Assembly: GCA_016235865.1 (NCBI GenBank)
Contig: JACRIK010000035.1
Coordinates: 1 to 64,000 of the forward strand
Direction of reading: 5' to 3'
Length of the DNA: 64,000 nucleotides
Source of the DNA: Planctomycetota bacterium
GTDB lineage: Bacteria; Planctomycetota; MHYJ01; JACQXL01
Below are positions 18,900-55,962 of this stretch, piece after piece. The notes under the pieces are model-generated. The model was not told the origin of the DNA, did no database searches, and saw only the letters and a program-made list of their open reading frames with translations. Made by a program: the position numbers and the translations under genes. Positions within the stretch are counted from its first letter, which is position 1; every line of letters starts with the position of its first letter.

Positions 18900-19060
18900 A
18901 TTAACCACAGATACACACGGATAAACACCGATAATTATATCCAGAGATAATTGACGTGTCGGCAGACAAAAGATAACATACCCCTTTAAAGAAATATAAA
19001 ACACGAATATTATTCGTGTGATTCGCCGTATTCGTGAGATTCGTGTTAGAATTTGGGAAT
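18900..19060. repeat. Intergenic repeats upstream of guaAb
   Basis: Contains a TTAACCACAGATACACACGG unit (also read into the carB 3' end near 56710-56735), a CACGAATA/TATTCGTG inverted repeat at about 19002-19018, and four ATTCG boxes at 9-bp steps (19012, 19021, 19030, 19039). No gene is likely here. Confidence 0.5.
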
Positions 19061-19065
19061 TTATT

Positions 19066-20019
19066 ATGTTTAAACCAGACAAGTTTATCACCGAAAAGAT
19101 AGCCGAGCTGCAGAATAAAATCAAGGGCACGGCCGTGATTGGCATCTCGGGCGGAGTGGATTCCACCACAGCGGCCATCATCGTCCATAAGGCCATCGGC
19201 AAGCAACTCCTGTGCGTACTGGTTGATACCGGCTATATGCGCAAGAACGAGGTCAAGTTCAATGAGCAGATGCTCAAAGACCTGGGACTGAATGTCATGG
19301 TGGCCGACGCCTCGGACCGGTTCTACGCCGGCCTCAAGGACGTGGCTGACCCGGAGCAGAAGCGCAAGGTCATCGGCGAACTCTTTATCCGGGTATTCGA
19401 GGAAATCGCCCTGAAACAAGGCGCCAAATACTTTATCCAGGGCACGATTGCCCCGGACTGGATAGAATCCGGCGGCGGATTGAGGGACAATATCAAATCG
19501 CACCACAATGTCGGCGGACTGCCAGCCAAGATTGCCTTTGAGATAGTCGAACCCCTGCGCGATTTATACAAGGACGAGGTGCGTCTGGTCGGTCAGGCAC
19601 TGGAACTGCCCACCGCGGTCTATGAACGCCAGCCCTTCCCGGGCCCGGGACTGGCCGTTCGGATTATCGGACCGACTGATGCCGCCAAGGCCGCGATTGT
19701 CCGCGAGGCCTGCGCCATCGTGGAAGAGGAACTTGAGGCCGCGGCTAAGACCAAACTCATGGTCATTCCCTGGCAGTATTTCGCGGTGCTGTTGCCGGTC
19801 AAGGCAGTCGGCGTGCACGGCGATGTCCGGGCCTATGGCTATGTGGTAGTGGTCCGGGCGGTCGAGAGCATGGACGGCATGAGCGCCACATACTCCAAGA
19901 TACCGCATCCGGTCCTGGAGAAAATCTCGGTGCGCATTACTAATACCTTAAAAGACAGCGTCAGCCGGGTGGTCTTTGATATCACCCATAAACCACCGGG
20001 GACTATTGAATACGAGTAG
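19066..20019 (+). CDS. guaAb: GMP synthase, ATP-pyrophosphatase subunit (split type)
   Basis: Adenylates XMP for conversion to GMP using ammonia from the partner amidotransferase. The 317 residues have the PP-loop VIGISGGVDSTTAAI (about 24-38), the DWIESGGGLRDNIKSHHNVGG block and the dimerisation domain with ERQPFPGPGLAVRIIG and a C-terminal PPGTIEYE. There is no amidotransferase domain in this chain; that function is the next gene. This is the archaeal arrangement; most bacteria use one fused GuaA. The start at MFKPDKF is chosen because the upstream in-frame extension is repeat-derived. Confidence 0.92.
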   Translation: MFKPDKFITEKIAELQNKIKGTAVIGISGGVDSTTAAIIVHKAIGKQLLCVLVDTGYMRKNEVKFNEQMLKDLGLNVMVADASDRFYAGLKDVADPEQKRKVIGELFIRVFEEIALKQGAKYFIQGTIAPDWIESGGGLRDNIKSHHNVGGLPAKIAFEIVEPLRDLYKDEVRLVGQALELPTAVYERQPFPGPGLAVRIIGPTDAAKAAIVREACAIVEEELEAAAKTKLMVIPWQYFAVLLPVKAVGVHGDVRAYGYVVVVRAVESMDGMSATYSKIPHPVLEKISVRITNTLKDSVSRVVFDITHKPPGTIEYE

Positions 20020-20026
20020 AAAAGAG

Positions 20027-20152
20027 GTTACACGTTCGCTTCGCTCAATGCAAGCAAACGGTTACAAGACGTTACAAAAACGTTACAAGAGGTTACTTAA
20101 GACTGTGCAACTTCCTGTAACATCATGTAACCCTACTGTAACTTCATGTAAC
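20027..20152. repeat. Mirror-symmetric array of GTTAC boxes
   Basis: GTTAC occurs at 20061, 20071, 20082 and 20092 (a further copy is at 20027), and its complement GTAAC at 20117, 20127, 20138 and 20148. The steps are 10-11-10 bp on both sides of a 25-bp step. Sequence between boxes is not conserved. The array fills the gap between the two GMP synthase genes. Confidence 0.8.
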
Positions 20153-20162
20153 ATTATATATC

Positions 20163-20732
20163 ATGCCTAAGATTTATGTAGTTGACAACGGCGGGCAATG
20201 GACCCATCGCATCTGGCGGGTCTTGCGCGAACTGGACTGCGACACCAAAATCATCCTCAATACCACCCTGCTGAAGGATATTGATGCCGATGGATTAGTC
20301 CTGAGCGGCGGCGCGGCCCGAATTGCCTGGGAATCGCTCAAATTAGGCGAATGCACTACTTACTTCAAGGAATTCAAGGGCCCTATCTTAGGCGTCTGCG
20401 TCGGACACCAGTTAATGGCTTCATATTATGGCGGCAATGCCGGCGCTTCTGAAATGCCTGAATTCGGACTCTCCAAGATACGCATCTTAGAACCAGATGA
20501 CCTGTTCAAAGGACTGCCTAAGGAATTCAATGTCTGGCAGTCGCACAACGACGAGGTCAAGTCAGCGCCGGGATTCACGGTCCTGGCTGAATCGGACAAC
20601 TGCAAAATCCAGGCCATCAAGCACCACACCAAACCGCACTACGGCGTCCAATTCCATCCCGAAGTGAACAACACGGAAAATGGCGAAGCTATATACCAAA
20701 ACTTCGTTAATATCGTGGCCGGGATGCGATAA
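20163..20732 (+). CDS. guaAa: GMP synthase, glutamine amidotransferase subunit (split type)
   Basis: Class I glutamine amidotransferase of 189 residues that supplies ammonia to the ATP-pyrophosphatase subunit. The nucleophile elbow is GVCVGHQLMASYYGG (Cys about residue 79), with the His-Glu pair in GVQFHPEVNNTENG (about 163-176). The opening IYVVDNGGQWTHRIWR is typical of archaeal GuaAa. It follows guaAb after the GTTAC box array. Its last codons (NFVNIVAG) are duplicated, degraded, at 22063-22214 beyond the ATPase gene. Confidence 0.92.
   Translation: MPKIYVVDNGGQWTHRIWRVLRELDCDTKIILNTTLLKDIDADGLVLSGGAARIAWESLKLGECTTYFKEFKGPILGVCVGHQLMASYYGGNAGASEMPEFGLSKIRILEPDDLFKGLPKEFNVWQSHNDEVKSAPGFTVLAESDNCKIQAIKHHTKPHYGVQFHPEVNNTENGEAIYQNFVNIVAGMR
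20700..20724 (+). repeat. Direct repeat at the guaAa 3' end (copy 1)
   Basis: 25 bp from AACTTCGT to GTGGCCGGGA match 22081-22090 plus 22192-22206 with one mismatch, once the 97-99 bp element in copy 2 is removed. Similarity extends upstream to GGCGAAG at equal spacing. May be an attachment-site-like junction for the segment between the copies. Confidence 0.6.
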
Positions 20733-22358: not shown

Positions 22359-23753
22359 ATGCTAATCAATATAACTGTTACAGGTAAGGATGCTAAAGCT
22401 TTGAGCTATATTTTGAGGAAAAATCCTGCTAATCTGTTATCGGAAAATTTCAGTGGCGGAAAGGTTGTCGTTTTCTTCCCTGAATATTCAGAAAACAGAG
22501 CCACTGCATCTTTGCTTACTCTAATTGATACCGTAGGAATGGTGCGTTCAGAATGGCAAAAGGTCGCGGCGAGTTACGTTGATTACCGGCCTTACGCTGC
22601 ATCAAGCTTATCTTCTGTTGCTTTAAAAGATGTGTATTCCAGTGCTTTCTCCGGCAAGTCTGATTTGCCGGAAATTGCTACTGTTATTCAACGTGAATTG
22701 CCTGTTGAAGTGGAGTTATCCAGTGTTTGGATTAGAGGCGGCATTAAGAATATTTATGATTTCTTTGAACCGCTCGGCTACAAAATTGAATATAAGGAAT
22801 TGCCTTTTGAATCTGCTTGGCTCAAGAACGAATCATCTACCGCTTACAATATTACTCTTTTTGGAAATAAAACTATATCAAATTTATTAAAGCACATATA
22901 TGTTATGCTTCCTGTCATTGACAACAGGAAACATTATTTCGTAGAAGAAAAAGAAATAGAAAAACTGCTAAGGCATGGTGAGGGATGGCTGGAAAAGCAT
23001 CCGGCTAAAGAACGAATTGTTTCTCGCTACCTGCTTCGTTATCGCAATCTGGTTGAAGAAGCATTAGAGCAACTTATTGACGACCAGCCTGATGAAATTC
23101 AAGATGAGGGAGCTGAAGAGTCCGATAAGGAAGAGCCTATAAGACTTCAGGAGGAAAGGTTGCAGAGTACCATAGCCATATTAAAAACATTAAATCCGCC
23201 TCCGCTGAGAATCGGCGATTTAGGTTGTGGTTCTGGGGCTCTTATTAAACTACTGGTTTTAGAGCGTTCTTTTGAAGATATAATTGGAATGGATGTATCT
23301 TCTCGGGCCTTGCAAATCGCTGAGAAAAAACTAAGGATAACAAAAAGACAGGTATGGCAAAAACCTAAGGTCTCCTTGTTACATGGCTCGTTAGTATATA
23401 TGGATGCTCGGCTTAAAGAATTGGATACTATCTTGTTGCTGGAAGTAATTGAACATCTAGAGCCGGCAAAAATACCTATTTTGGAGCATAATGTTTTTGA
23501 ATACTTAAGCCCAAGATATATTTTTGTATCAACCCCTAATTTTGAATATAATCAATTATTCCCGAGTTTCCAGGAACGAAAATATAGGCACGCAGACCAT
23601 CGCTTTGAGTGGACCAGGAAAGAATTTAAGCAGTGGGCTGAAAGATTAGGCGAAAAATATTCCTATGCAATTGATTATTATAATATTGGTACGCCTGATG
23701 AAAAACTGGGAGCGCCGACTCAAATGGCAGTTTTCCGCAAGAAAAGTATTTAA
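22359..23753 (+). CDS. hen1: RNA 2'-O-methyltransferase Hen1 (bacterial RNA repair)
   Basis: Methylates the 2'-OH at the 3' end of a broken RNA before sealing, so that the repaired site resists recleavage. The N-terminal half (about residues 1-240) is the Pnkp-interacting domain typical of bacterial Hen1. The C-terminal methyltransferase has GDLGCGSGALIKLL (about 285), LLEVIEHLEP (about 360, with the metal-binding Glu/His of this family) and HADHRFEWTRKEF (about 410). The stop is directly followed by the pnkp start codon. AT-richer than the flanking housekeeping genes, suggesting acquisition. No clear Shine-Dalgarno is seen. Confidence 0.9.
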   Translation: MLINITVTGKDAKALSYILRKNPANLLSENFSGGKVVVFFPEYSENRATASLLTLIDTVGMVRSEWQKVAASYVDYRPYAASSLSSVALKDVYSSAFSGKSDLPEIATVIQRELPVEVELSSVWIRGGIKNIYDFFEPLGYKIEYKELPFESAWLKNESSTAYNITLFGNKTISNLLKHIYVMLPVIDNRKHYFVEEKEIEKLLRHGEGWLEKHPAKERIVSRYLLRYRNLVEEALEQLIDDQPDEIQDEGAEESDKEEPIRLQEERLQSTIAILKTLNPPPLRIGDLGCGSGALIKLLVLERSFEDIIGMDVSSRALQIAEKKLRITKRQVWQKPKVSLLHGSLVYMDARLKELDTILLLEVIEHLEPAKIPILEHNVFEYLSPRYIFVSTPNFEYNQLFPSFQERKYRHADHRFEWTRKEFKQWAERLGEKYSYAIDYYNIGTPDEKLGAPTQMAVFRKKSI

Positions 23754-26324
23754 ATGTTAGATAATAAAATCTCAATTAGAATACCGGAGTTATCTTTAGT
23801 TGTCCTTGTTGGCAGTAGTGGTTCCGGCAAGTCATACTTCTGCCAGAAGCATTTCAAACCGACTCAAATAGTTTCATCTGACTTTTGCCGCGGTATTATT
23901 AGTGATGACATTAATAACCAAGGGGTTACGCCGGAAGCCTTTGAATTACTAAACTTCATTATCAGCAAACGGGCTGATTTGAGAAAGTTAACTGTTGTTG
24001 ATGCCACAAGTTTAAGACATGAAGACCGGGAAAACCTGATAAATTTAGCCCGTAGGCATCATATTTTGCCAGTTGCTATTGTCTTTGACGTTAACGAGAA
24101 AACCTGCTGGGCTAGGACTCAGCAACGGCCGGACCGAGACTTTGGCCGACATGTTGTCAGGACTCACAATTTGCTTCTTAAGAAAACAATAAGGAATATA
24201 AAGCGCGAAGGATTTACCGGCGGACTTTATATTCTTAATGAAGATGAAATTGATAATGCTGAAATTGTTTTCTCCCCGCTTTTCAACAACAAGAGAAATG
24301 AATCAGGGCCATTTGATATTATCGGGGATGTGCATGGTTGTTATGATGAATTAATCGAATTGGTAGAGAAGCTTGGCTATCGTCAGGAAAATGGGCTATA
24401 TAAACATCCTGATAACAGAAAACTGATTTTTGTTGGTGACCTCACCGACCGTGGCCCAAAGATAATCGAGACGGTTAATTTTGTAATAAATCATTCTATC
24501 AATAATCTTGCTTATGTAGTGCGTGGTAATCACGACAAGAAATTCACTAATTATTTACGAGGACAAAATGTTAGGATTGACCATGGATTAGAACAGACCA
24601 TCGCACAGTTGGAATCACTGCCGGAAGCAGAACGCATCAAATTCAAAGAGCAGTATCAGAAATATGAGAGAAACGTAATTTCACATTATATCTTTGACCA
24701 AGGTAATTTAGCTGTTGCTCATGCTGGAATAACCGAATACTTTCAAGGTCGCGGTTCAGCGCAAATCACAGATTTTTGTCTTTATGGGCAAACCACAGGT
24801 GAAATTGACGGCTATGGATTGCCGGTTCGCCTTGATTGGAGTGAAAATTATCGCGGTAAAGCCCTTGTTGTTTATGGCCATATCCCAGTTGAGGAAGCAG
24901 AATTTGCTAACAATACTATCGATATTGACCAAGGGTGTGTATTCGGTGGCAGACTTACCGCCTTACGCTATCCAGAACGCGAGTTGATTTATGTGGAGGC
25001 TAAGGCTCAATACTATACGCCCACTAAAACATTTAGCAAAGAGGCCGATGAAAAAGAGAAATCTAATCTTACTAAGCAACAGCGCTATGACCATTATTTA
25101 GATATTACTGAGTTTATTGGAAAGAAATTTATTTCCGTACATGGCAAAGGTATGATTACGGTATTCCCGGAACAAATTGAAGCCGCGATTGAAGTCGTTT
25201 CCAGATTCTGCGTGGATCATCGTTGGTTAACTTATATCCCACCGACTATGTCGCCATGTGAAACCTCTCAATTGTCTAACTATTTGGAGTATCCAACTGA
25301 GGCTTTTAGTTATTACAAGAAGAGGGGTATTCCGAATGTTATCTGCGAAGAAAAACATATGGGATCGCGTGCGATTTTGATATTATGCAAAGATGAAAAA
25401 GCATGCCTCAATCGTTTTGGCTTAGAAGCTATCGGTCAATGCTATACTAGAACCGGCCGCCAGTTTTTCAAAGATAACGAACTTCAACAAAAGTTCTTGC
25501 GTCGATTAGTAGAGAGTTTGACTGCTAATAATTGGTGGGAGAAATTTGATACGGATTGGGTTATTATTGACGCTGAAGTTATTCCCTGGAACTTAAAAGC
25601 AGGGGAACTTTTGATTAATCAATATGAATTGGTGGCAACCACTGCTAAAAACACGCTTCAAAAAATGTATGAAAACGTATTAAAGGCATCTCAAAGAGGC
25701 GTAGCAATAACCGAATTAAAAGATTCGTTAAGCCAACAACTAAAAGACATAAACGCCTATCAAAAAGCTTATCAGAATTATTGTTGGCAGGTCTCTTCGT
25801 TGGATGATATAAAAATAGCGCCGTTTCATTTACTTGCCACAGAAAACAGGATATACACTGATAAAAATCATACCTGGCACATGGAGACGTTAGGCGAATT
25901 AGCCAGTTTTGACAAGATTTGGAAGAAGACCCCATTCCTGCAAGTAGAAACAATAAATGAATTGTCTTGCCAGCAAGGGATTGATTGGTGGCTCGAAATT
26001 ACTAATAAAGGTGCGGAAGGCATGGTTATCAAACCATCTGATTTTATTGTTTACTCTAAAGGTAGGTTAGTACAGCCTGCTCTGAAATGTCGTGGAAAAG
26101 AATACTTAAGAATAATATATGGCCCAAGTTATGATGCACAAGTTAATTTGGAAAGGTTAAGAAATAGAGGGCTTAGAACCAAGCGCTCCTTAGCAGAAAA
26201 AGAATTCGTGCTTGGTATTGAAGGGTTGACACGATTTGTTAGAAATGAACCATTGCGGAGAGTCCATGAATGCGCATTAGGTGTTTTGGCCATGGAAAGT
26301 GAAACCACCGACCCAAGACTGTAA
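23754..26324 (+). CDS. pnkp: Polynucleotide kinase-phosphatase-ligase (Pnkp, RNA repair)
   Basis: Three-domain RNA end-healing and sealing enzyme of 856 residues. The 5' kinase domain has VGSSGSGKSYF (about residues 18-28). The metallophosphatase domain has GDVHGCYDE (about 188), VGDLTDRGP (about 223) and VRGNHDKK (about 258). The C-terminal ligase/adenylyltransferase domain has EEKHMGSRA (about 530), giving the lysine that accepts AMP. Together with Hen1 it repairs RNAs cut by ribotoxins. It is directly adjacent to hen1 and of normal length. AT-rich composition supports transfer as a cassette. Confidence 0.93.
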   Translation: MLDNKISIRIPELSLVVLVGSSGSGKSYFCQKHFKPTQIVSSDFCRGIISDDINNQGVTPEAFELLNFIISKRADLRKLTVVDATSLRHEDRENLINLARRHHILPVAIVFDVNEKTCWARTQQRPDRDFGRHVVRTHNLLLKKTIRNIKREGFTGGLYILNEDEIDNAEIVFSPLFNNKRNESGPFDIIGDVHGCYDELIELVEKLGYRQENGLYKHPDNRKLIFVGDLTDRGPKIIETVNFVINHSINNLAYVVRGNHDKKFTNYLRGQNVRIDHGLEQTIAQLESLPEAERIKFKEQYQKYERNVISHYIFDQGNLAVAHAGITEYFQGRGSAQITDFCLYGQTTGEIDGYGLPVRLDWSENYRGKALVVYGHIPVEEAEFANNTIDIDQGCVFGGRLTALRYPERELIYVEAKAQYYTPTKTFSKEADEKEKSNLTKQQRYDHYLDITEFIGKKFISVHGKGMITVFPEQIEAAIEVVSRFCVDHRWLTYIPPTMSPCETSQLSNYLEYPTEAFSYYKKRGIPNVICEEKHMGSRAILILCKDEKACLNRFGLEAIGQCYTRTGRQFFKDNELQQKFLRRLVESLTANNWWEKFDTDWVIIDAEVIPWNLKAGELLINQYELVATTAKNTLQKMYENVLKASQRGVAITELKDSLSQQLKDINAYQKAYQNYCWQVSSLDDIKIAPFHLLATENRIYTDKNHTWHMETLGELASFDKIWKKTPFLQVETINELSCQQGIDWWLEITNKGAEGMVIKPSDFIVYSKGRLVQPALKCRGKEYLRIIYGPSYDAQVNLERLRNRGLRTKRSLAEKEFVLGIEGLTRFVRNEPLRRVHECALGVLAMESETTDPRL

Positions 26325-26376
26325 TGACCAACGGAGTACGGTTCTATCAATTCCAAAAACCATTTCAAGGCATACC

Positions 26377-26816
26377 TCCCTATACCCTATAGGTATATAC
26401 CCTACACCTACTAGGGGAATACCCTACTCCCACTAGAGGCATACCCTACTCCCACTATAGGCATACCCTAGACCTACTACCATACTACCCTATACCCCAT
26501 ACTATACCACCCCACACCCTATAGGTTTATATCCTATACCTACTAGGGGACTACCCTAGACCTACTGGGGTATTACCCTATACCTACTGGAGGACTACCC
26601 TAGACCTACTGGGGTATTACCCTATACCTACTAGAGGACTACCCTGGACCTACTGGAGTACTACCCTATACCTACTAGAGGGATACCATAGACCTACTAT
26701 AGTATTACCCTATACCCACTATAGGACTACCCTAGACCTACTAGAGGCATACCCTAGACCTACTACCATATTACCCTACACCGTATAGATATGTATCCTA
26801 TACCCTATAGGGGGCA
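26377..26816. repeat. 22-bp tandem array 1 (20 units)
   Basis: Twenty consecutive diverged units, each exactly 22 bp with no gain or loss over 440 bp. Most contain ACCCTATACC or ACCCTAGACC followed by TACTAGAGG or TACTGGGG. Several units carry a short dyad: TACT-AT-AGTA (unit 15), TACT-GG-AGTA (unit 13), CCTATAGG (units 1, 7 and 20). Stops occur in most frames, so it is not a protein repeat. It begins 53 bp after pnkp. Confidence 0.9.
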
Positions 26817-26881
26817 TAGAGTTATTTGCCCCAAATATCCGTATTTTTCTTAAAGACCCCCTTCATATCGTAAAAGCTACG

Positions 26882-27299
26882 GGAGATTATCGCAAATCCG
26901 GCCGGTCATTATGGCGCATCCGGCCGAGGATTATGGCGCAAACGCACGGAGGTTATGGCGCATCCGCACGGAGATTATGGCAATTCTGGCCGGAGGTTAT
27001 CGTAAATCCGTCCGGTAGTTATGGCGAATCCGCCGGGAGATTATCGTAAATCTGGCCGGGAGTTATGGCAAATCTGCGCGGAGGTTATGGCGCATCCGCC
27101 GGGAGGTTATCGTAAATCCAGCCGGACATTATGGCGCATCCGGCCGGGAGTTATGGCAAATCTGCACGGAGATTATCGTAAATCCGCCGGGAGGTTATGG
27201 CGCATCTGGCCGGGGGTTATGGCGAATCTGGCCGGAGGTTATGGCGCATTGTATGGGTGGTTATGGCGAACAGGATGGGGGGTTATGGTGAGGGGGGTG
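26882..27299. repeat. 22-bp tandem array 2 (19 units)
   Basis: Nineteen diverged units of exactly 22 bp, with a sequence unrelated to array 1. Core GGTTATGGCGCATCC, alternating with a TTATCGTAAATCC version. At most unit junctions there is a dyad TCCGGCCGGA, TCCGCACGGA or TCTGGCCGGA. The period is not a multiple of three; plus-strand open frames across it encode 22-residue repeats but look incidental. Confidence 0.9.
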
Positions 27300-27400
27300 G
27301 GGGGACTATCCCCCCTCTTTGTAAGAGGTTGATTTATAAGGGGATAGGAGAGGCGAAAACACGAAAAACGGGCATTTTGGGTCTAAAAATGGGGGTATTT

Positions 27401-28546
27401 CTAGCTAAATTTCTTCAATGCCAGAGAGATATTTTTCAAGCCCTGTTTCAGGAGATGGGGTTTGGTGCCTGAGGCAATCCGGATATAGCCCGGCGTCCCA
27501 AAATATTCGCCCGGAACTACCGAGGTCTGGTAGCGTTGGAACAGGTGTTTCTGGAATTTGAACGAATCCTTGAACGGTAATTTGATGAAACAAACGATGC
27601 CGCCGGCCGGCTCAACCCATTTCAAACGCGGCTCGGTGGCTATCCAGTCCTTGATTATCTGGCGCTTATTCCCGACTATCTCTTTAGTGCGTTTTATCAG
27701 CGCTCCAATATGACGCATGCAGTATAGCGAAATCATCTGGGCCGGATAGGAGTCAACGGCCGACATATAATCATAGGTCCGGGAGAAGAGATAGGCCAGT
27801 TCCGGCGATGCCATAATCCAGCCGGTGCGCATCAGGCCCAGGCCATAGACCTTGGTTAAGCTGGACAGCGTTATGGCCATCGGGCTGGTCTTGCAGAACG
27901 GCCGACGTGGCTGGTCCCTCCTGAGGCGGGTCTGTGAGCTAAATTTCTGGTCGTCCCTTTCGACAAACAAGAAATCCTTATAGACCTCGTCACAGGCAAT
28001 ATAGACATGGTGTTTTTCGGCCACCTTGACCAATCCCCTGATAACGGCTTCATCCATCTTTACGCCGGAGGGATTATGCAGGTCGGTCAGGAAGATGAGT
28101 TTGGTCTTGCGGGTAATCAGGCGGTCCAACTCAGCCGGGTCCGGTTGCCAGTTATTTTCTATCCGCCTGTGTAAAGGAACTATCTTGGCGCCGAGCGACT
28201 GGGCTGAGCGTCTCATCGGCTCGTAGCACGGCGATTCCAGGATAATCTCATCCCCGCTTTTAAGCAGTCCGGCGCAGAGCAGGTAGATAGCCATATTTGC
28301 TCCGGCACACATGGCAATATTGGCTACCTTAACATTGTAATATTTAGCCAATTCCTGTTTCAAGGCCAGCGGGCCGTAGCTGTCTCTGGCATTATGATGG
28401 CTGTATAGTTCCAGATTCTTCATCTTGAAACCCATCTGGAGCAGTTCCTTGAGTTCCAGAGACGGCATGCCGCTTATCATCAGCGGGTATTTGATTTTTT
28501 CCAGGTCCAGCATCTTGACCCATTCGATGTGGTCGACCTTTAACAT
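27401..28546 (-). CDS. Class I/II PLP-dependent aminotransferase
   Basis: A 381-residue fold-type I aminotransferase. The PLP lysine is in SSLTKVYGLGLMRTGW (about residues 232-247), with the Asn and Asp contacts in LHNPSGVKMDE (about 156-166) and IACDEVYKDF (about 185-194). The substrate cannot be assigned; the sequence is closer to the aspartate/alanine-type group than to histidinol-phosphate enzymes. Between DEVYKDFLF and the PLP lysine a basic segment (SSQTRLRRDQPRRP, about 204-217) coincides with a near-palindromic stretch and may be a repeat insertion. The C-terminus ends about 100 bp from array 2. Confidence 0.88.
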   Translation of the reverse strand: MLKVDHIEWVKMLDLEKIKYPLMISGMPSLELKELLQMGFKMKNLELYSHHNARDSYGPLALKQELAKYYNVKVANIAMCAGANMAIYLLCAGLLKSGDEIILESPCYEPMRRSAQSLGAKIVPLHRRIENNWQPDPAELDRLITRKTKLIFLTDLHNPSGVKMDEAVIRGLVKVAEKHHVYIACDEVYKDFLFVERDDQKFSSQTRLRRDQPRRPFCKTSPMAITLSSLTKVYGLGLMRTGWIMASPELAYLFSRTYDYMSAVDSYPAQMISLYCMRHIGALIKRTKEIVGNKRQIIKDWIATEPRLKWVEPAGGIVCFIKLPFKDSFKFQKHLFQRYQTSVVPGEYFGTPGYIRIASGTKPHLLKQGLKNISLALKKFS

Positions 28547-55070: not shown

Positions 55071-55224
55071 GAGACTGTGTCATAATGTCATTGCGAGGAG
55101 CGGAGCGACGAAGCAATCTCATGTTTCCCTCATAAAATAGAGATTGCCACGCTCCCGGAGTTTACCCCGTCGTATGACGGGGGTCGCTCGCAATGACAAA
55201 AAAAATGGGTTGCGACACAGTCTC
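55071..55224. repeat. 154-bp composite repeat with 11-bp terminal inverted repeats
   Basis: Bounded by GAGACTGTGTC (55071-55081) and GACACAGTCTC (55214-55224). Inside is the widespread GTCATTGCGAGGAGC...GCTCGCAATGAC palindromic repeat, itself interrupted by CCCCGTCGTATGACGGGGG. No gene is encoded. Confidence 0.7.
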
Positions 55225-55962
55225 AACAAAGGGGGTCAGGGGGTTGTGGGCATTTCTAAGGGGTAATTCTTACCGCAACTTATTAAACTTCATAGAGTTA
55301 GGTTATCTTACCCTTATGTCTGTATTTCTTCCCCGGAGTCCCGGATTTCTTTCCGGGAGTCCCGGATTTCTTTCCGGTAACTACGGATTTCTTCCCTGTA
55401 ACTACAGATTTCGTCCCGGTAGCTACGGATTTCTTCCCCGTAACTACAGATTTCTTCCCCGTAACTACGGATTTCTTCCCTGTAACTACAGATTTCTTCC
55501 CTGTAACTACGGATTTCTTCTCCGTAACTACGGATTTCTTCCCTGTAACTACGGATTTCTTCCCCGATGCATCGGAATCTTTCCGCCCTAAGACGGAATC
55601 TTTCCACCCTAAGACGGAAACCTTCAGCCCCTGGGGATAAATCACTTGTTTATGGCCTGTAGTCAATCGGCTCTGGCTTATAGTCAACTGTCTATGACTT
55701 ATAGCCAATCATCCCTGACTCAGGTATAATCATCCTTGAACCAGGTACAGTCGTCCCTGACTCAGGTACAGTCGTCTCTGACCCAAGGGGATGTCCTTAT
55801 AACCCGTGGCGATGCCGCGAAGCTCATAGAAAGGTGAATAAGGAAGGGTAAAAGGCTGTCTTGGGAAAACGCAGGCCTGGAAGTCAGATATTTAAGGAGT
55901 TACAGAGGCAGGTGGGTGTCACCGGCCCTTGAATTCCCGCTTGCCCGCTTGGAACTTAGGCG
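55225..55962. other. 738-bp gene-free stretch holding the 21-bp array
   Basis: Contains the tandem array (55324-55785), then about 180 bp without recognisable features. Long open frames on both strands over the array (heptapeptide repeats) follow from a 21-bp unit lacking stops; no start signal or export signal supports a real protein. Confidence 0.5.
55324..55785. repeat. 21-bp tandem array (22 units)
   Basis: Twenty-two units of exactly 21 bp that drift in sequence along the array. Early units share ATTTCTTCCC plus a dyad: CCGTA-AC-TACGG (units 7, 10), CTGTA-AC-TACAG (units 4, 8), CCGGGA-G-TCCCGG (unit 2), CCGATGCATCGG (unit 12). Late units (16-22) use TAGTCA...TGACT-type dyads. Paired changes in the two arms suggest the dyad is kept. 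Confidence 0.9.

What the first reader, a model, noticed from the sequence alone, without database searches (positions are those of the whole stretch)
26377..27299. Two adjacent, unrelated tandem arrays with exactly the same 22-bp period beside an RNA-repair cassette
Seen directly: 20 units (26377-26816) and 19 units (26882-27299), 440 and 418 bp, each unit exactly 22 bp with no indel despite heavy point divergence. The two consensus sequences do not resemble each other. Length is conserved far better than sequence, which suggests selection on spacing (two helical turns, a 22-nt RNA unit, or an iteron-like array). Units or unit junctions contain small dyads (TACTATAGTA in array 1; TCCGGCCGGA and variants in array 2). 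They start 53 bp after pnkp. Known 22-bp iterons occur at plasmid origins, but no rep gene is present. A role with Pnkp/Hen1 is only a possibility from proximity.
Basis: partly seen in the sequence, partly recalled or inferred. Interest (0 to 1): 0.82.

Follow-up and report, generated by a model that had tools for sequence, protein, structure and literature searches.

The report
Genome-wide 22-bp satellite elements, Planctomycetota
The two repeat arrays are real, but they are two of at least thirty scattered intergenic elements in this uncultured planctomycete, in which the repeat sequence changes freely while the repeat length stays at 22 (or 21) base pairs, a pattern shared by its order and not tied to the RNA-repair genes.

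Summary
Observation confirmed: two adjacent arrays (26373-26804 and 26882-27291), strict 22-bp register, unrelated units, no net indel. The proposed RNA-repair link fails. In 0.82 Mb of this genome all 32 non-coding arrays have period 22/44 (27) or 21 (5). An order-level relative (G005) and a same-family genus (G003) show the same periods with unrelated units; about 0.6 Mb of more distant Planctomycetota shows none. Both finding arrays have a sister copy elsewhere in the genome. Most 22-bp arrays adjoin a G-rich box (29/33, against 22/132 array-free intergenic windows). The best-sampled family has the same 25-bp G box at all seven copies here and at three in G003; 390 other planctomycete genomes have none. 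The spacing between element ends changes by whole units: array 2 and its sister differ by exactly 66 bp. Indels are at least 16-fold rarer per substitution than in other dispersed intergenic repeats of this genome. I read these as dispersed, probably non-autonomous BOX-like elements carrying an in-register satellite. Curvature, universal hairpins, coding and a shared motif were tested and not supported. The force that fixes 22 bp (selection on spacing, or a generating ruler) remains open.

The parts
26373..26804 (.). Array 1: 19.6 units of 22 bp, consensus TACCCTATACCTACTAGAGTAC; sister copy inverted at G000 C18:55593-56157
26844..26881 (+). 5' end module of array 2 (TTTTTCTTAAAGACCC...ACGG), shared with the sister element at C35:73906
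   Evidence: alignment; position
26882..27291 (.). Array 2: 18.6 units of 22 bp, consensus GGAGGTTATGGCGAATCCGGCC; sister array at C35:73944-74265 with 14.6 units
27292..27315 (+). G-rich box with palindrome, GGGGGGTGGGGGGACTATCCCCCC; the same kind of box adjoins most 22-bp arrays of unrelated sequence
27316..27410 (+). 3' tail with spaced A/T runs, weakly conserved with the sister element
   Evidence: alignment; read by eye
55301..55785 (.). Second array locus in the window: period 21, with several unit types that drift into each other while keeping the 21-bp register
22359..23753 (+). hen1 (context; shown not to be linked to the arrays)
   Evidence: Pfam Hen1_L E 7.7e-70
23754..26324 (+). 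pnkp (context; its 3' end faces the arrays)
   Evidence: Pfam PNKP_ligase E 5e-159; arrays absent at other pnkp loci
27401..28546 (-). Class I/II aminotransferase, convergent with pnkp (context)
   Evidence: Pfam Aminotran_1_2

Best explanation
Arrays 1 and 2 are two neighbouring copies of a lineage-specific class of dispersed intergenic elements, roughly 250-550 bp long. An element consists of a G-rich palindromic end box, an array of 6-21 head-to-tail units and a short second end. Shown: copies are scattered; ends are conserved within a family and, for one family, between two genera; the unit sequence is replaced between families and genera; array size changes by whole 22-bp units; single-base indels are nearly absent. 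Inferred: copies spread as non-autonomous mobile or gene-conversion-copied elements that are tolerated near gene 3' ends, and arrays grow and shrink by unequal exchange or slippage in register, which also homogenises units in blocks of 2-6. Inferred and least certain: the register is kept because something reads the spacing (two helical turns), such as a DNA-bound protein lattice, rather than because of a purely mutational ruler.
For: Genome-wide census with all 32 non-coding arrays at 22/44 or 21. Dispersed families with collinear copies. A 25-bp G box with 7 copies in this genome, all at 22-bp arrays, and 3 in another genus, none in 390 further planctomycete genomes. Same ends but unrelated units between genera: best circular match 9, shuffled mean 10.6. 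End-to-end spacing conserved modulo 22 in families B, C, D, array 2 and among G003 copies. One uncompensated indel per 2,050 mismatches; same-aligner control 0.153 gap events per mismatch in other dispersed intergenic repeats against 13 one-base events per 1,381 mismatches in arrays. Convergent gene pairs enriched (11 of 30 loci, odds ratio 3.9, P 0.002) and divergent pairs avoided (0 of 30, P 0.001) in G000.
Against: No transposase, target-site duplication or empty site was found, so mobility is inferred from dispersed copies only. Terminal inverted repeats are at best short and imperfect (GGTATGGTG / CACCATACC in family B). One family-B copy (C33) has an out-of-register deletion, so the register is not absolute. 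For array 1 only the array itself, not clear end modules, aligns with its sister copy. The orientation bias is not significant in G005, where two array loci are divergent. The gene caller was home-made and missed pnkp.
Confidence: 0.62

Rival explanations
1. Ordinary minisatellites: arrays born locally by replication slippage and homogenised by unequal exchange, with a lineage-specific polymerase or repair quirk that favours 21-22 bp duplications and no function.
For: Arrays have higher-order periods 44, 66, 88 and 132, typical of block exchange. Copy number differs between sister copies by whole units. A mutational ruler would explain 22 bp without a reader.
Against: Shared end boxes at unrelated arrays and dispersed families. 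Indel depletion and mod-22 end spacing are not expected of drifting sequence with the indel rate seen in other repeats of this genome.
Confidence: 0.2
2. Sequence-independent spacing element: a nucleoid, topological or transcription-end protein binds the array as a lattice every two helical turns, and selection keeps only the spacing. (Compatible with the best explanation; it would be the reason for its fixed length.)
For: Length is the only property common to all units. Indels are depleted and registers kept end to end. Arrays lie mostly at gene 3' ends and between convergent genes in G000.
Against: No 11-bp component in base composition or in column conservation beyond weak trends. Predicted curvature no higher than in column-permuted arrays. 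No binding protein known. Period 21 and period 22 both occur.
Confidence: 0.25
3. RNA element: the array is transcribed and acts as a repeated 22-nt RNA unit or hairpin chain.
For: Some arrays fold better than column-permuted controls (array 1 z -3.9, C18:55667 z -3.5).
Against: Many arrays show no excess and some fold worse than permuted controls (array 2 z -0.1 and -0.6). No Rfam family matches in the window other than a tRNA.
Confidence: 0.07
4. Part of, or regulated by, the Pnkp/Hen1 RNA-repair cassette.
For: Proximity only.
Against: Arrays at 30 or more other sites. No pnkp in the order relatives that have arrays, and no arrays near pnkp in other planctomycetes.
Confidence: 0.01

Closest known systems
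BOX elements of Streptococcus pneumoniae (boxA - boxB repeats - boxC; PMC3049150)
   Same: Dispersed small intergenic elements with end modules around a variable number of tandem internal units; over-represented between convergent genes; read there as probable non-autonomous mobile elements.
   Different: Internal unit is exactly 22 (or 21) bp, 6-21 copies, with sequence replaced between families while length stays; G-rich palindromic end; another phylum. Sequence homology to BOX was not tested.
Non-coding prokaryotic satellites, e.g. Leptospira interrogans and Methanocella conradii families (PMC6749651)
   Same: Non-coding tandem arrays forming dispersed families in one genome, suggesting satellite transposition.
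   Different: Here a single unit length governs unrelated families and is kept across an order. That survey reports varied repeat lengths and mostly multiples of 3.
Tandem repeats of Borg extrachromosomal elements (PMC9879509)
   Same: Many arrays of unrelated units scattered through one replicon.
   Different: Borg units are perfect, of varied length, A-rich and about half in genes. These are diverged, fixed at 21-22 bp and intergenic, and lie in a bacterial genome.
REP/BIME and GTAG repeats with RAYT transposases (PMC3733652)
   Same: Intergenic, convergent or codirectional location, dispersed, palindromic component. This genome has two Y1 transposases.
   Different: Units are not general palindromes; the Y1 transposase genes are not flanked by the G box or arrays.
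Plasmid iterons
   Same: About 22-bp direct repeats in tandem.
   Different: More than 30 chromosomal sites with unrelated sequence; no match in the plasmid collection.

Membership tests
BOX-like composite repeat | Conserved end modules flanking tandem internal units | tested here: met
   Family B in two genera, array-2 family, families C and D. Not clear for array 1.
BOX-like composite repeat | Internal unit number varies between copies | tested here: met
   Array 2 end-to-end 448 vs 382 bp; family D 211 vs 387 bp
BOX-like composite repeat | Sequence homology to pneumococcal boxA, boxB or boxC | not tested
   No sequence comparison made
MITE | Terminal inverted repeats | tested here: inconclusive
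   Only a short imperfect pair read by eye in family B
MITE | Target-site duplication | not testable with these tools
   No empty sites: no strain-level relatives were available
MITE | Related autonomous transposon in the genome | tested here: inconclusive
   Two Y1 transposases found, not flanked by these ends; other transposase families not searched
Plasmid iteron array | Located at a replication origin beside a rep gene | tested here: not met
   At least 30 dispersed chromosomal loci; the two neighbouring genes of these arrays are pnkp and an aminotransferase
CRISPR array | Near-identical repeats separated by unique spacers | tested here: not met
   Continuous 22-bp tandem units, no spacers
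REP/BIME | Units are palindromes able to form a stem-loop | tested here: not met
   Fold excess over column-permuted controls absent in many arrays
Ordinary minisatellite (VNTR) | Local tandem repeat without shared flanks, unit length free to vary | tested here: not met
   Unit length 22/44 or 21 in all 32 arrays; G box near 29 of 33 22-bp arrays

The most novel reading that the evidence does not exclude
A bacterial satellite system whose only selected property is its repeat length: sequence turns over completely between families and genera while a 22-bp (or 21-bp) register is held, because a host or element protein reads two-turn spacing on DNA irrespective of sequence.
Probability: 0.22. Interest if true: 0.85.

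Novelty: new variant of a known kind. Interest (0 to 1): 0.58.

Why it matters
Bacterial genomes usually carry few non-coding satellites, with mixed unit lengths (PMC6749651). Here one order of Planctomycetota carries roughly one array every 25-45 kb, nearly all of one length class, many with shared end boxes. That gives a natural experiment on whether repeat length can be conserved without sequence, and on how satellites spread in a prokaryote. These arrays probably also break assemblies (two sampled contigs end inside them), so they matter for reconstructing such genomes.

Tried and rejected
RNA structure as a general property: column-permutation fold test on 40 arrays, mean z about -1.0 and -0.7, many near zero or positive. 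DNA curvature with a dinucleotide wedge model (parameters from memory): mean z -0.19, no excess. 11-bp phasing of composition or conservation: z 1.2 to 1.6 at most, not convincing. Coding: 22 is not a multiple of 3, array 1 has no ORF of 60 aa or more, and the ORF 27021-27332 over array 2 has no Pfam hit. RAYT transposase link: not supported. Pnkp link: rejected. Positional conservation of 22-bp arrays between genera: one or two cases, mostly not shared, so weak. A sequence relative in plasmid or phage records: none. Literature searches on 22-bp tandem repeats and on planctomycete repeats found no description of this; the library is open-access only.

Full report
WHAT IS THERE. Array 1 spans 26373-26804 (19.6 units) and array 2 spans 26882-27291 (18.6 units). 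Both are strictly 22 bp per unit, about 80% identical to their consensus, and without net indels. Their units are no more alike than shuffled sequence.

THEY ARE NOT SPECIAL TO PNKP. The window lies in a 2.67 Mb planctomycete assembly (a relative's record title names the phylum). A DNA search found sister copies: array 1 at C18 (inverted, about 75% identity) and array 2 at C35:73906. I sampled 822,878 bases of the genome. Every one of the 32 non-coding tandem arrays found there had a fundamental period of 22/44 (27 arrays) or 21 (5 arrays). Pnkp homologues in other planctomycetes have no such array within about 1.5 kb, and none of the eight order relatives has a Pnkp match.

RELATIVES. G005 (same order, other family; 552 kb sampled) has the same pattern: 11 of 13 non-coding arrays at 21/42 or 22/44, with units unlike those of this genome and G-rich boxes near several. 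G003 (same family, other genus) has it too. About 599 kb from ten class- and phylum-level relatives has none. The sampled contigs are limited, so absence there is a statement about density.

ELEMENTS, NOT ISOLATED ARRAYS. Seven families of dispersed copies were found. G-rich boxes adjoin 29 of 33 22-bp arrays, against 22 of 132 array-free intergenic windows (the detector is lenient). Half of all G or C runs of 6 or more lie in the 2.7% of sequence in and around arrays. The box of family B, GGGGGAGGGGGNANGGTGGGGGGTA, occurs seven times in this genome, each time at a 22-bp array, three times in G003 and nowhere in 390 other planctomycete genomes (arrays at these places). Family B in G000 and G003 shares the box and a tail (CAAGTATTTGTTGA), yet the units are unrelated. 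This is the clearest sign that the unit sequence was replaced while its length was kept.

THE REGISTER. Over 40 arrays there are 2,050 mismatches to consensus and one uncompensated indel. The distance between end modules is conserved modulo 22: array-2 family 448 and 382 (remainder 8), family C 325 and 325 (17), family D 211 and 387 (13), family B 311, 311, 289, 311 (3) and 312, 290 (4), and G003 copies 17, 17, 17, then 19, 19, then 18. One family-B copy, C33 at 258, breaks the rule through an out-of-register deletion. As an internal control, other dispersed intergenic repeats of this genome show 88 gap events per 576 mismatches. The same aligner on array blocks gives 13 one-base events per 1,381 mismatches, plus 17 events of exactly 22.

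POSITION. With a simple gene caller, 11 of 30 array loci in G000 lie between convergent genes, 19 between codirectional genes and none between divergent genes; array-free intergenic regions are 29, 144 and 53. G005 does not show this significantly. Pneumococcal BOX elements show the same convergent excess and are read as tolerated mobile elements (PMC3049150).

WHAT DOES NOT EXPLAIN THE 22 BP. General RNA hairpins, predicted curvature, 11-bp phasing, coding and a shared unit motif were each tested and found wanting. Two possibilities remain: selection for two-turn spacing by a bound protein, or a duplication mechanism with a fixed step.

VERDICT. These are dispersed BOX-like intergenic elements carrying a length-fixed satellite, a new variant of a known kind, shared by an order of uncultured Planctomycetota.

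Noticed in passing
G000 C3:293254(-), L061:14780(+) in G003, G005 C5:1056(-) and C5:24611(+): All four members found of an unnamed gene family (no Pfam match; N-terminus like M..DYIP..D) have a 21-bp array directly upstream of the start codon, with unit sequences unrelated between genera. This suggests a second, 5'-leader class of array.
   Followed up: partly
window 55301-55785: Composite 21-bp array in which unit types drift into one another without losing register.
   Followed up: partly
G003 loci L186, L188, L192, L194, L196: The element's right end (AAAAACCAAGTATTTGTTGATTT) is followed after 16 bp by a TATAAT-like hexamer and, in most of them, soon by a start codon: possible outward promoter (read by eye).
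   Followed up: partly
window 19018-20732: GMP synthase appears split into separate ATPase and glutaminase ORFs with short direct repeats (GTTACAAGAC) between them.
   Followed up: no
window 55081-55195: Inverted intergenic repeat of the CATTGCGAGGAGCGGAGCGACGAAGCAATCTC type; part of it recurs near C3:61902.
   Followed up: no
G000 C27:246341 and C33:268 (L151, L152): Two Y1 transposase genes flanked by repeats of GACGGGGACAGACCACATATTTT; partial gene copies are stacked beside the one at C33.
   Followed up: partly
G000 C3:1-352 and C35:94271-94478: Two contigs of the assembly end inside 22-bp arrays, so the arrays probably break the assembly and their number is likely underestimated.
   Followed up: no
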